From Methylococcales bacterium (GTDB lineage Bacteria > Pseudomonadota > Gammaproteobacteria > Methylococcales > Methylomonadaceae), in contig JAPLRZ010000046.1 in NCBI GenBank assembly GCA_026398895.1, positions 1-64,000 on the forward strand: a stretch of 64,000 nucleotides of DNA. The letters are read 5' to 3'. The position numbers and the translations under genes are program-made. Of this stretch, positions 3,072 to 63,878 are shown piece by piece; the stretch's first letter is position 1, and every line of letters begins with the position of its first letter. The notes beneath the pieces were generated by a model. The model was not told where the DNA came from. It did no database searches and saw nothing but the letters and a program-made list of their open reading frames with translations.

Positions 3072-5187
<2,116 letters not shown>

Positions 5188-5190
<3 letters not shown>

Positions 5191-5298
5191 CTGAGGAAGT
5201 ATTTGCGATTAAAAAACCCGTTCGCGCTGAGCTTGTCGAAGCGTGAATGTGGTTCGACAAGCTCACCACGAACGGCATCATTTTATTGTGCTTTAGCT
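5188..5298. repeat. CCGTTCG/AGCTAAC miniature element, copy 1
   Basis: The core has inverted AGCTTGTCGAA and TTCGACAAGCT, with CCGTTCG and CGAACGG outside them and TTAGCT at the end. Four other copies lie at 9640-9774, 22785-22894, 33578-33687 and 60924-61027. Confidence 0.75.
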
Positions 5299-5334
5299 AT
5301 ATGTTAATAATTTTCGTGTCTTTCGTGGACAAAA

Positions 5335-6015
5335 TTACAAACTCTGCCGAATAGCCTTCACGGTCGCTTCGGTCAGTGGGTGTCTTTGATGATCCCATAT
5401 ATCGCCTTCTAGCTCTATCGCTAACATACGAATCGTTTCTACATAGTCATCAAATACAGAGAGTGCGTCATCTAAGGCATTGGGCTGCATAAAAAATACA
5501 ATACCTGGGCAGTAAAAATTTTCTAAATTACTACTAGGAAATGTACCTGGTTCTACCATGCAGGCAACACCAAAATCGACCAATTGATTAGCATCTATGC
5601 GTTCAAATATTTTTAAATTGCCGTATTTAAGCCCTGCTATTCTAAATGCACGAATTAAATCCAGCCCATTAAAACCTTCTGTTGCTCTAGCTGCCAAACA
5701 AAATTGAATAATATCGGGGGTAATAAGACGCGGCTGAACAGGAGTAGAATCATCATCTTCCTCGTCATCTTCGTCAGTCGAATAATAGCTCTCTGGTGGA
5801 TTAGCAATGGCAGAGCCTAAAGGTTCAATATATTCTTCATCCTCATCATCGTCACTGTTTTCTGAATCATTACGCGACTTCTGTATTTCGCGGTCGTCAT
5901 CAAAATCCATGTCTCGTTGTGATTTTTTGTCTTTCAAATAACCCCACGTCAACATGGCAATGACAATAATCAGCCCTGTGGCAATAATTACAATTCTTAG
6001 TATTTCTTTATCCAT
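5335..6015 (-). CDS. zipA: Cell division protein ZipA
   Basis: ZipA anchors FtsZ to the inner membrane early in division. The N-terminus has one transmembrane helix (about residues 6-26). A strongly acidic linker rich in D and E follows (about 35-95). The C-terminal FtsZ-binding domain begins near ITPDIIQF and contains GFNGLDLIRAF and the ending VKAIRQSL. At 226 residues it is shorter than the enterobacterial protein, mainly in the linker. Its ATG overlaps the smc stop by one base (TAATG), so the two are translationally coupled. Confidence 0.9.
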   Translation of the reverse strand: MDKEILRIVIIATGLIIVIAMLTWGYLKDKKSQRDMDFDDDREIQKSRNDSENSDDDEDEEYIEPLGSAIANPPESYYSTDEDDEEDDDSTPVQPRLITPDIIQFCLAARATEGFNGLDLIRAFRIAGLKYGNLKIFERIDANQLVDFGVACMVEPGTFPSSNLENFYCPGIVFFMQPNALDDALSVFDDYVETIRMLAIELEGDIWDHQRHPLTEATVKAIRQSL

Positions 6016-57711: not shown

Positions 57712-58131
57712 TTACTGTGTGTTTCGCGTCTTCATCAATTCAATCACTTCCCTTAACAAACTATTTTCAGTATTGAGATGTTCAAATTCCTTATCCCGTT
57801 CTTGCAACAACAAGCGCGTTTGGTCTAATTCGTGAGCGCATTGCGTTTCGGTTAGCAACGTCAAGGCGACATTTTGCGAATAATTATGTCGAATTTGTTG
57901 GCAGTTTCCAGCAATATTGACCACATTACTTTCATTCAAACCCAATAAGTCTTGCAAACTAATCCCTAACGCTTTCGTTATATCGTCCAGATTGCCAAGA
58001 GTCGGGTCAGTTTCACCGCGTTCCAGTTTTGCATAGCCTTGAATAGACGCATAACCCAGTTTTTCAGCCATCTGTTCCTGAGTCAAACCCTTAAACAAAC
58101 GCATCACCTTAATTTTTTCGTGAACATCCAT
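57712..58131 (-). CDS. XRE-family regulator with C-terminal coiled coil
   Basis: The helix-turn-helix is at about residues 8-62 (MRLFKGLTQEQMAEKLGY, YAKLERGETDPTL). A C-terminal helix (about 95-135) looks like a coiled coil that could make dimers or bind a ligand. It is read away from the three-gene unit starting at 58310, with about 180 bases between the starts, so it may control that unit and itself. It has its own terminator. Confidence 0.85.
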   Translation of the reverse strand: MDVHEKIKVMRLFKGLTQEQMAEKLGYASIQGYAKLERGETDPTLGNLDDITKALGISLQDLLGLNESNVVNIAGNCQQIRHNYSQNVALTLLTETQCAHELDQTRLLLQERDKEFEHLNTENSLLREVIELMKTRNTQ

Positions 58132-58309
58132 TCGACCTATCCTATAAATACCTGTATTAGCTACTGTGGGTTGCTGTTATTCATACCAGAAAAAGCCTAC
58201 TATTCATGTGCCTGAATAACTTTCAGACCACACAAGCACAGGCTAATAACGTCTATGTGCATTTTAACAGTGTTAGGTTTTTTTAACACAAGCAATTTGG
58301 AGAATTATC

Positions 58310-59239
58310 ATGGCATTACCATTTATTCTATGGGGAGCGGCGGCTCTACTTGCAGGTACAGGGGTTGTAAAAGGCTTTGGCGCAATGAGTGATTTTGACG
58401 ATGCTAAAAATATCGGCGAATCAGCGTGTAAACGCTATGAAGATGCAGAATCCAGCTTACAAAACTCCCGCAATCAAACTAATTCAGAATTTGAAGCACT
58501 GGGTAAAGTTAAAGTATCGATTTTCAATAATCAAATTAATCACCTTGTTACGGCTATCAAAAAATCTAAAAACGCCTCTTCTAAACTAAAAGATTTTGAT
58601 GTAAGCATCAGCCCTGACGAATTAAAAGAGATGGAGCGTCTTATTTTAACCTCGTTGGAAATAGAAAGGGGACTTGGTACAGGTGCAGTAACTGGTGCGC
58701 TTGCTGCATGGGGTGCTTATGGTAGCGTAGGTTTGTTAGCCACAGCTTCAACAGGCACTGCAATTTCAACTTTAAGTGGTGTTGCAGCTACTAATGCCAC
58801 ACTGGCTTGGCTGGGCGGTGGGGCGTTAAGTGCTGGTGGTTTCGGTATGGCAGGCGGCACACTTGCCTTAGGTGGTATTGTTCTCGGCCCCGCACTGGCA
58901 GTTGGTGGTTTTATGTTGGCAAGTAAAGCTGAAAAAGCCTTAACTCAAGCGCATGAATACCGAGCAGACGTTGATATTGCCATTGCTGAAATGGACAAAA
59001 TGAAAATTGTACTGAACGCTCTACAAGCTAACGCAAAAGAAGTGAGCAATGCTTTAAGTCAAATGGCAAAACGCTTTGATGTCATCAAAGTGAATGACGA
59101 TAGTAATAGCCAAGCGTTCAATCAAATGATGATTGTAGGTAAAGGACTTAAAAGCCTGTTAGATGTTGCCATCATGGAACAAGACGGCGGTGCGTCGAAA
59201 AACATAAAAGCAAAAATTTCTGGTTACTTGGAAATTTAA
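58310..59239 (+). CDS. Glycine/alanine-rich membrane-active protein with coiled coils
   Basis: This 309-residue protein has a short N-terminal hydrophobic start (ALPFILWGAAALLAGTG), a helical, charged segment (about 25-125), then a long G-, A-, S- and T-rich hydrophobic stretch (about 125-200; ATASTGTAISTLSG, LAWLGGGALSAGG). A second coiled-coil segment closes it. This layout resembles pore-forming or apolipoprotein-L-like proteins that enter membranes by a hairpin. The similarity is only in build. GGAG stands nine bases before the start. It heads a likely three-gene unit. Confidence 0.65.
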   Translation: MALPFILWGAAALLAGTGVVKGFGAMSDFDDAKNIGESACKRYEDAESSLQNSRNQTNSEFEALGKVKVSIFNNQINHLVTAIKKSKNASSKLKDFDVSISPDELKEMERLILTSLEIERGLGTGAVTGALAAWGAYGSVGLLATASTGTAISTLSGVAATNATLAWLGGGALSAGGFGMAGGTLALGGIVLGPALAVGGFMLASKAEKALTQAHEYRADVDIAIAEMDKMKIVLNALQANAKEVSNALSQMAKRFDVIKVNDDSNSQAFNQMMIVGKGLKSLLDVAIMEQDGGASKNIKAKISGYLEI

Positions 59240-59255
59240 TGTATAGGGGGCTTCA

Positions 59256-59693
59256 ATGGTGGATATTACAAAAAATATTAAAAATGTAGTTGCCAACGTG
59301 TCTAAAACATCAATTCCTATGCCAATCCCAACGGATGCGGCGAATCAAGCGTTTAACAATTTAGTAAGCGCGTGGAAAGAATGTTCGATAGTTGCCGAAC
59401 AAGAGCAAACCAAGCGGGAAAATATTAGAGCTTATCGAGATATAAACGTTAAAGCCATTGAAGAAAACTCTGCTATTTTAAAACTTTACCTAGAAAAAAC
59501 CTTTGCAGAACGGGCTTATAGTATTCAAGAAATGTTTGACCGTTTGGATAAAGGAATAGAGTTAGGTAACACTGATCTAATTGCATCGACCATTGGGGCT
59601 ATTGTCGATATTATCAAGCAATCGCCGTTGGAAGCTGCCAAACAATTAATCGCCAATTATCACGACCCCAACGTAACAATGATTGAAATATGA
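59256..59693 (+). CDS. Helical hypothetical protein of the XRE-linked unit
   Basis: This soluble protein of 145 residues is nearly all helix. The central segment EQEQTKRENIRAYRDINVKAIEEN and the following SAILKLYLEKTFAERAYSI look like a recurring bacterial family of unknown role, found near membrane-active or regulator genes. It starts 17 bases after the preceding gene, and its stop overlaps the YkgJ-type gene (ATGA). It could be a partner or antidote. Confidence 0.6.
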   Translation: MVDITKNIKNVVANVSKTSIPMPIPTDAANQAFNNLVSAWKECSIVAEQEQTKRENIRAYRDINVKAIEENSAILKLYLEKTFAERAYSIQEMFDRLDKGIELGNTDLIASTIGAIVDIIKQSPLEAAKQLIANYHDPNVTMIEI

Positions 59694-59959
59694 GTGAAGC
59701 TTTTCCCTGCAATAGCTGTGGTGCGTGTTGTAAGTCTATTCGACTATCCACGCAAACCGAATGGTTAGACCGTGGTGACGGCGTGTGCAGGTATTTTGAT
59801 GACCAACAAAATACCTGCACCATTTATGAAAACCGCCCTGAAATTTGTAATGTCCGCGTCATGTATGAAAAACATTACCAAAGCCAATTTAACTGGTCTG
59901 AATTTGTTTTGGTCAATCAAAAAGCGTGTGACGCTCTTTTGGTGCAAATAAAAAAGTAG
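59690..59959 (+). CDS. YkgJ-family cysteine-cluster protein
   Basis: This 89-residue protein carries CNSCGACCKSI near the start, then later CRYF, CTIYENRPEIC, the pattern of the YkgJ/UPF0153 family. Eight cysteines could bind zinc or an iron-sulfur cluster. The length is short for the family but all the main cysteines are present. Coupled to the previous gene by ATGA. Confidence 0.8.
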   Translation: MSEAFPCNSCGACCKSIRLSTQTEWLDRGDGVCRYFDDQQNTCTIYENRPEICNVRVMYEKHYQSQFNWSEFVLVNQKACDALLVQIKK

Positions 59960-59963
59960 CGCT

Positions 59964-60035
59964 TAGGCTGGGATGACATAAGGAATCCCAGCATAACATC
60001 GAAAAATGCTGGGATTCGTACCTTATCCCAGCCTA
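59964..60035. repeat. TAGGCTGGGAT...ATCCCAGCCTA element, copy 1
   Basis: The ends TAGGCTGGGAT and ATCCCAGCCTA are inverses, with inner GGAATCCCAGCAT and ATGCTGGGATTC. A second copy is at 63792-63878. Confidence 0.75.
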
Positions 60036-60230: not shown

Positions 60231-60887
60231 TCAAGCTAATAGTGCGGCAATAATACCCGTCAAAAAAATACCATCAAACGTACCCGCGCCACCAATTGCA
60301 GCAACAGGCGCACCCAGATTTTTTATGTTATTGAGCCGAAGAATATCCGCGCCTATCAATACGCCTAGCACGCCGCTGATGTAAGCAAGGTGTGCAGCAT
60401 GAGCGGGATCAAGAAGTAGCGCGAGCAGTGCAGAAGATAGCGGAGCTATAAACAAAGGCATTCCCACGCCTAATCCAGGAATAATACGGCTGCATTGATA
60501 GCTTAATGCGGTGATGGCTGACAAGGCGATTAATAAACTAATTGGTTCAATTAGTTGTAGCGAAATAAAATAAAAGCACAGTCCCACAGGAATAACGCAA
60601 CCGCCAACATTAACGGCGACCACAACTTTACCTTCTTTAGCAGGTTGAAATAATTCCCAGATCATTTTTTGCTCTGACAATTTAACAAAATGCCCTGATT
60701 CTTTGGTATGCAGATCAAAAAGCCGCAGATTAATTCCGCTACCAATTAGTGTGCTAATCAATAACAGCAGGGTGGTTTCAGGCGTTAAACCAAGTTTTGA
60801 AAAAGCGATTTCAAAGAGATGAATCTGCACCATCACCATGAAAAATAAGGCGATAAAGAGAAAAATACCTAACGAGATAATTGGCAT
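60231..60887 (-). CDS. DUF1614 membrane protein
   Basis: Six or so transmembrane helices fill this 218-residue protein. Conserved features of DUF1614 are INLRLFDL, VNVGGCVIPVGL and IGGAGTFDGIFLTGIIAALLA at the end. The family occurs in bacteria and archaea; the role is unknown. AAGGAAGGG precedes the ATG. It is a single gene flanked by repeats. Confidence 0.85.
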   Translation of the reverse strand: MPIISLGIFLFIALFFMVMVQIHLFEIAFSKLGLTPETTLLLLISTLIGSGINLRLFDLHTKESGHFVKLSEQKMIWELFQPAKEGKVVVAVNVGGCVIPVGLCFYFISLQLIEPISLLIALSAITALSYQCSRIIPGLGVGMPLFIAPLSSALLALLLDPAHAAHLAYISGVLGVLIGADILRLNNIKNLGAPVAAIGGAGTFDGIFLTGIIAALLA

Positions 60888-63743: not shown

Positions 63744-63791
63744 TATTATTACCAGTGTTGCATTAAGGATTAGTAATCCTGTTAATAGTGC

Positions 63792-63878
63792 GTAGGCTGT
63801 GATGAGGTACGAATCCTAGCATTTCATCGATAGTGTGCTGGGATTCTCATTACATCATCACGACCTATACAGCCTACG
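63792..63878. repeat. GTAGGCTG...CAGCCTAC element, copy 2
   Basis: It is related to 59964-60035 with the same GAATCCTAGCATTTC and GCTGGGATTC inner arms. It lies between the secreted protein gene and glyA. Confidence 0.7.

What the first reader, a model, noticed from the sequence alone, without database searches (positions are those of the whole stretch)
57712..59959. XRE-controlled three-gene unit with a pore-like protein
A divergent XRE regulator, a coiled-coil protein with a 75-residue glycine-rich hydrophobic core, a helical partner and a cysteine-cluster protein form a compact unit with overlapping genes. The design (regulator, membrane-active protein, small partner) suggests a toxin-antitoxin or phage-response unit of unknown type.
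Basis: inference. Interest (0 to 1): 0.6.

Follow-up and report, generated by a model that had tools for sequence, protein, structure and literature searches.

The report
Minimal form of a candidate defence system
This is a small mobile gene set, probably an anti-phage module in which a membrane-active protein kills or stalls the infected cell; it is a stripped-down version of a candidate system listed by others but never tested, and it lacks the nuclease-like part that its relatives carry.

Summary
The four genes are real. XRE lies at 57712-58131(-), A (309 aa) at 58310-59239, B (145 aa) at 59256-59693 and C (89 aa) at 59690-59959. A has an 85-residue charge-free Gly/Ala-rich core that no shuffle reproduces and nearly all relatives keep. 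A is family PDC-M09A of PADLOC, an unvalidated phage-defence candidate. In 56 related loci, A almost always lies beside B, and in 43 of 57 loci also beside C, whatever the gene order. C has eight invariant cysteines and is not in PADLOC's models. The window's B corresponds to the C-terminal domain of a 450-580 aa partner whose N-terminus carries PD-(D/E)XK-like, HNH-like or LRAT domains elsewhere. The window thus holds a minimal 'short-B' version without an effector domain; the A proteins of this version form one clade. The XRE link is loose: four loci share it, the genome has 13 XRE-family genes, and a sister genome keeps XRE but lacks A-B-C. Relatives lie in tRNA-linked islands of E. coli beside CRISPR-Cas or restriction systems, and on plasmids, but not in phage records. 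Best reading: an abortive-infection module acting at the membrane, with pore formation by A inferred only. New variant of a known candidate kind.

The parts
57712..58131 (-). XRE/HTH_3 regulator with coiled-coil tail, 139 aa, divergent from A
   Evidence: HTH_3 1e-11; same family divergent from A in 4 of 57 loci; 13 matches in the genome, itself included; kept without A-B-C in G004
58132..58309 (.). XRE-A intergenic region; TAACAGTGTTA palindrome at 58265-58275 is a possible operator (unproven)
   Evidence: aligned in four genus members; homology with G004 stops at 58298, 12 bp before the A start; promoter-like hits not above shuffles
58310..59239 (+). Gene A, 309 aa: hydrophobic N-terminus, long helix, 85-residue Gly/Ala-rich charge-free core, long helix
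   Evidence: PDC-M09A 3e-31, 52 of 52 relatives; weak XaxA 7e-5; charge-free run; model
58670..58924 (+). coding stretch of A's charge-free core, residues 121-205, probable membrane-inserting hairpin
   Evidence: holds most of the invariant columns of the family alignment
59256..59693 (+). Gene B (short form), 145 aa, helical; matches the C-terminal domain of long B proteins that carry a nuclease-like or LRAT N-terminus elsewhere
   Evidence: hhalign 91% and 82% to long-B profiles, controls 0.1-0.3%; model; no PADLOC or Pfam match
59690..59959 (+). Gene C, 89 aa, YkgJ/CxxCxxCC cysteine-cluster protein, eight invariant Cys
   Evidence: PF03692 2.3e-7; alignment; next to A/B in 43 of 57 loci
59964..60035 (.). 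long hairpin directly after C (REP/MITE-like, possible terminator)
   Evidence: fold z-score -8.4; diverged partial copies elsewhere in the genome

Best explanation
A-B-C is a mobile anti-phage (abortive-infection type) module, a nuclease-less 'short-B' version of the candidate family that PADLOC calls PDC-M09. SHOWN: A, B and C travel together across phyla; A carries a conserved charge-free glycine/alanine-rich core; B corresponds to the C-terminal domain of larger partners whose N-terminal domains are swapped (PD-(D/E)XK-like motif, HNH-like motif, LRAT, or none recognised); C has eight invariant cysteines; the unit is present or absent at the same site in sister genomes; relatives lie in integrative islands beside CRISPR-Cas and restriction genes. 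INFERRED: A stays harmless with B bound as a helical scaffold. On infection the A-B complex changes state, A inserts its glycine-rich hairpin into the inner membrane, and the cell depolarises or stops growing before phage release. In long-B versions the same membrane complex releases or positions a nuclease or LRAT effector; here the membrane damage itself must be the effector. C probably binds an Fe-S cluster and sets up or gates the complex (redox sensing or modification of A/B), because it accompanies A whichever effector B carries. Local control is by an exchangeable regulator (XRE here, WYL or none elsewhere).
For: PDC-M09A 3e-31, 52/52 relatives; long B = PDC-M09B or PDC-M40B in the members scanned. 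Neighbourhood: B in 54/57 loci, C in 43/57 with variable order, WYL in 16, TerB-like in 11. Short B matches long-B C-terminus at 91%/82%, controls 0.1-0.3%. Effector domains: invariant E..D..QxK, HNH-like D-H..H..N..N, LRAT 1.2e-6. Core. Short-B A proteins form one supported set (97 starred), in which a Bacillota and an Azoarcus A are sisters, which implies transfer or a binning error. Patchy: 6 of 101 genomes searched, own included. Sister G004 lacks A-B-C at the same site, and in G006 A is broken. E. coli: 425 of 5,426 genomes; the four islands read lie by a tRNA gene (tRNA-Phe in three) and hold type I-E CRISPR-Cas, type I RM, phosphorothioate-dependent REase remnants or Ter genes. Plasmids: near a phosphorothioation-associated methyltransferase, type I RM, and SIR2. 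Absent from 50,697 phage records; no IMG/VR candidate confirmed. Fe-S: FliB's related Cys motif (CX4CX3CC) holds a [4Fe-4S] cluster, and FliB also has eight conserved Cys (PMC8598068).
Against: No experiment known to me shows defence or toxicity for any member; PDCs remain mostly unvalidated (PMC12988326). In the window itself the neighbours are ribBA and a membrane protein, not a defence island. A scan of 121 neighbour proteins against PADLOC was not richer than 103 control proteins, whose set happened to include CRISPR loci, so defence-island enrichment is not demonstrated statistically. The A model has low confidence in the core (pLDDT 30-50), and no fold match is significant. Similarity to alpha-xenorhabdolysin A (7e-5) and, in relatives, to the LeoBC dynamin stalk (best 5e-8) is weak. 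Nuclease assignments of long B are motif-level; profile searches of the PDB found nothing.
Confidence: 0.5

Rival explanations
1. Dynamin-stalk-like membrane remodelling: A is a GTPase-less relative of the LeoB middle/paddle/GED part, bending or sealing membrane (protective, like bacterial dynamins) rather than making pores.
For: 29 of 52 A proteins match PADLOC LeoBC (best 5e-8); the aligned part spans stalk, membrane region and stalk again (LeoBC 323-566 of 601). Leo dynamins are split in two genes with a membrane-binding part in one (PMC4159319).
Against: No GTPase domain in A, B or C. The window's own A gives no LeoBC match at E 1. The match may reflect only the shared Gly-rich core and coiled coils.
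Confidence: 0.15
2. Toxin-antitoxin unit: A is the toxin, B (or modification by C) neutralises it, XRE represses; function is stabilisation of mobile DNA rather than phage defence.
For: Compact operon with a local regulator, mobile, on plasmids, absent from a sister genome, and disrupted in G006.
Against: B is also the scaffold for variable nuclease-like domains in relatives, which fits a multi-part effector complex better than an antitoxin. XRE persists without A-B-C in G004, and plasmid-type stabilisation does not explain the domain swapping.
Confidence: 0.15
3. Binary/ternary alpha-pore-forming toxin (xenorhabdolysin/ClyA-like) aimed at other cells rather than the producer.
For: Weak XaxA similarity in 14 of 52 members; the long-helix layout puts ClyA and AhlB/SmhB pores among low-scoring fold hits (ClyA Z 6.1).
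Against: All matches are in the range that unrelated helical bundles give (note). I saw no secretion apparatus or lysis cassette in the annotated neighbourhoods as a constant partner. The effector domains sit at the N-terminus of B, unlike polymorphic toxins, and no immunity gene tracks the effector type.
Confidence: 0.08
4. Ordinary accessory stress or envelope genes unrelated to conflict, filed as defence only by proximity.
For: Some relatives carry TerB next to the unit; the window's neighbours are housekeeping genes; the PADLOC neighbour scan was not above control.
Against: Cross-phylum distribution, integrative islands, plasmids, swapped nuclease-like or LRAT domains, and a WYL regulator, a type known from defence loci.
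Confidence: 0.12

Closest known systems
PADLOC PDC-M09 (A+B; computational, unvalidated phage-defence candidate) and PDC-M40 (HNH-type B)
   Same: A matches PDC-M09A across residues 26-266; the gene pair A-B; long-B relatives match PDC-M09B or PDC-M40B
   Different: The window's B is only the C-terminal domain and is not recognised by the PADLOC B models; C is a frequent third part with no match in PADLOC-DB
LeoABC dynamin-like system of E. coli (LeoB/LeoBC)
   Same: helix, Gly-rich membrane region, helix layout; PADLOC LeoBC hits 29 of 52 relatives of A
   Different: no GTPase part; partner genes differ; the window's own A shows no match
Alpha-xenorhabdolysin / YaxAB / ClyA alpha-pore-forming toxins
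   Same: long helices flanking a hydrophobic insertion; weak XaxA profile hit
   Different: scores far below cut-off (22 vs 125 bits), no export context seen, different gene partners
FliB flagellin lysine methylase ([4Fe-4S], Cys-rich motif likened to PF03692)
   Same: C has a CX2CX2CC motif of the type likened to FliB's CX4CX3CC, and both have eight conserved Cys
   Different: C is an 89-residue protein with no other domain recognised; no flagellin context; not compared with FliB directly

Membership tests
PDC-M09 (PADLOC) | component A profile | tested here: met
   3.3e-31 and 5.7e-24
PDC-M09 (PADLOC) | component B profile | tested here: not met
   no PADLOC match for the 145-aa protein at E 1; homology only to the C-terminal part of long B by profile comparison
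PDC-M09 (PADLOC) | anti-phage activity | not testable with these tools
   needs phage challenge
Bacterial dynamin LeoBC | GTPase domain with P-loop | tested here: not met
   no GTPase family in A, B or C
Alpha-xenorhabdolysin A (NF033928) | score above curated cut-off | tested here: not met
   22.3 vs 125 bits
ClyA-type alpha-PFT fold | fold match to solved pores | tested here: inconclusive
   Foldseek E 0.28 (6mrt_A), VIA Z 6.1 (2wcd_A) with unrelated helical proteins as high; core modelled at pLDDT 30-50
YkgJ / PF03692 CxxCxxCC | CX2CX2CC motif, curated cut-off | tested here: met
   31.8 vs 23 bits; invariant in 25 aligned members
Fe-S protein like FliB | bound [4Fe-4S] cluster | not testable with these tools
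   needs spectroscopy
Type II toxin-antitoxin | neutralisation of toxin by partner | not testable with these tools
   needs expression assays

The most novel reading that the evidence does not exclude
A three-part immune membrane-disruption complex in which an Fe-S protein (C) senses or licenses the response, built on a scaffold (A plus the B C-terminal domain) onto which nucleases or an LRAT hydrolase have been plugged repeatedly, and which here works with no enzyme at all.
Probability: 0.2. Interest if true: 0.75.

Novelty: new variant of a known kind. Interest (0 to 1): 0.5.

Why it matters
PADLOC lists A+B as a candidate without mechanism. The comparison here shows that the system has a third, cysteine-cluster component; that B is modular (effector domain plus a shared C-terminal domain); and that a whole clade does without the effector domain. 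That makes a direct test possible: if the short version protects, the membrane protein alone is the effector, and the nuclease is an add-on.

Tried and rejected
Direct fold identification: no significant Foldseek match for A or B, and VIA Z up to 7.5 for A, within the range for generic helical bundles. PDB sequence-profile searches with A, C and three long-B alignments gave no credible relative. Enrichment of PADLOC families among 121 neighbours versus 103 control proteins: not higher (161 vs 329 families matched); the control hit CRISPR loci with many overlapping models, so the measure is poor and I do not claim enrichment. Homology between A and short B: not supported (0.3%); A against one long-B profile gave 33% over a helix only. 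Homology of short B to the HNH-type long-B profile: not supported. Phage-borne copies: none in GenBank phages, none confirmed in IMG/VR. A paper search for PDC-M09 found nothing, and a joint search that included PDC-M40 found no paper with that term. The palindrome between ribBA and XRE was not found in the genome with the pattern used, not even at its own site, so that pattern was badly written and says nothing.

Full report
OBSERVATION. The four genes exist as described: XRE 57712-58131(-), A 58310-59239, B 59256-59693, C 59690-59959. XRE is an HTH_3 protein and C is a PF03692 CxxCxxCC protein, both above curated cut-offs; A and B have no Pfam family. A has an 85-residue stretch without D, E, K, R or H (residues 121-205, 25% Gly). 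The best of 10,000 shuffles of A has 57, and 48 of 52 relatives have 79 or more. Most invariant columns of the family fall in this core. B and C overlap by 4 nt, A and B are 16 nt apart.

FAMILY. A matches the PADLOC candidate family PDC-M09A at 3e-31, as do all 52 aligned relatives. Long B proteins of relatives match PDC-M09B (L020) or PDC-M40B (L043, E. coli plasmid L058); other long B proteins scanned matched neither. These are computational candidates; PDC families are described as mostly unvalidated (PMC12988326), and I found no paper on PDC-M09.

NEIGHBOURHOOD. Fifty-six related loci from Pseudomonadota, Campylobacterota, Bacillota, Bacteroidota, Myxococcota, Synergistota and Fibrobacterota were read (taxa). 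A B homologue is in 54 of 57 loci (window included), C in 40 by clustering plus three found by motif (L005, L014, L053), in differing orders; several of the rest are contig ends. C has eight invariant Cys. WYL regulators are in 16 loci, a TerB-like gene in 11, the window's XRE family in 4. A-B and A-C distances are correlated (r 0.87 and 0.42, none of 5,000 permutations as high), which fits joint inheritance but does not exclude shared phylogeny.

MODULAR B. Long B proteins have 450-580 residues. One class has invariant E, D and QxK residues near the N-terminus (A5: E81, D116, Q138, K140; A7: E60, D95, Q108, K110), a PD-(D/E)XK-like pattern; the two alignments are homologous to each other (100%). 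Another has an HNH-like D-H...H...N...N pattern. L021 has an LRAT domain (1.2e-6). These nuclease names rest on motifs only; PDB profile searches were empty. The window's B aligns to the C-terminal domain of the PD-(D/E)XK-type proteins (91% and 82%), while comparisons with the HNH-type profile and with A gave 0.1-0.3%. By inspection, L033 (Campylobacter) joins an HNH-type N-terminus to the other type of C-terminus. A proteins that pair with short B form one supported set of the tree (17 short plus one unknown, 97 starred), so the short form is a lineage, not a sequencing accident.

MOBILITY. A is in 6 of 101 genomes of the window's kin, own genome and partial hits included, and on 14 plasmids, in no GenBank phage, and no IMG/VR candidate was confirmed. 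In sister genome G004 (ribBA product 99% identical) homology runs through ribBA, XRE and the intergenic region to 58298, 12 bp before A, and resumes at 60716; A-B-C are replaced by other genes while XRE stays. In G006 the first part of A is present next to XRE but broken and cut short. In E. coli 425 of 5,426 genomes hold a match to the WYL-A-B cassette, 365 of them over most of it. In three of the four islands read it lies near an integrase at tRNA-Phe; the fourth has an integrase beside an unassigned tRNA. Neighbours vary: type I-E CRISPR-Cas, type I RM with phosphorothioate-dependent restriction remnants, a cytosine methyltransferase, Ter genes. On plasmids A lies near a phosphorothioation-associated methyltransferase, type I RM genes, or SIR2 and TA genes.

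MECHANISM. Shown: co-inheritance, core, modular partner, cysteine cluster, mobility, company. Inferred: membrane insertion by A, growth arrest as the output, B as scaffold, C as Fe-S protein. The Fe-S inference rests on FliB, whose related Cys motif holds a [4Fe-4S] cluster and which also has eight conserved Cys (PMC8598068). Structure prediction is not decisive: A mean pLDDT 64 with the core at 30-50, B 74, no significant fold match. Weak similarities to xenorhabdolysin A and to the LeoBC stalk both fit a helix, membrane hairpin, helix protein and do not choose between pore and dynamin-like action.

REGULATION. XRE control is possible but not shown. The intergenic region has a conserved tract and a TAACAGTGTTA palindrome in the window, promoter-like hits are not above shuffles, the XRE family has 13 matches in the genome, and XRE is kept without A-B-C in G004.

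VERDICT. Real, not ordinary housekeeping by the comparative evidence, but a variant of an already listed candidate rather than a new kind. The new points are C as a third part, the modular reading of B, and the effector-less clade to which the window belongs.

Noticed in passing
L095 (own genome, contig C20 around 146 kb), locus 3277-5769: A paralogous XRE gene is divergent from a C-like cysteine-cluster gene, followed by radical-SAM-like ORFs, a PqqD-like protein and two Gly/Ala-rich small peptides: looks like a RiPP-type cluster (read by eye, not scanned) and shows the XRE plus CxxCxxCC pairing outside this unit.
   Followed up: partly
59964-60035 and 63786-63846: Long near-perfect hairpin (fold z -8.4) after C, with diverged copies elsewhere in the genome, including one 3.8 kb away: a REP/MITE-like element.
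   Followed up: partly
L063 / L099 (genus member G007, contig C24): A 283-aa A-like protein without the N-terminal hydrophobic segment, with a 480-aa long-B-like partner, an ORF that looks like a uracil-DNA glycosylase and a WYL-like regulator: a further variant in the same genus.
   Followed up: partly
L034 5932-12304 (Acinetobacter pecorum): Two A-B units in tandem, one with a PD-(D/E)XK-like B and one with an HNH-like B.
   Followed up: no
L123 and other E. coli records: E. coli A and B are annotated 'chemotaxis protein' and 'cobalamin adenosyltransferase', probably misannotations; some copies are broken by IS elements or frameshifts.
   Followed up: partly
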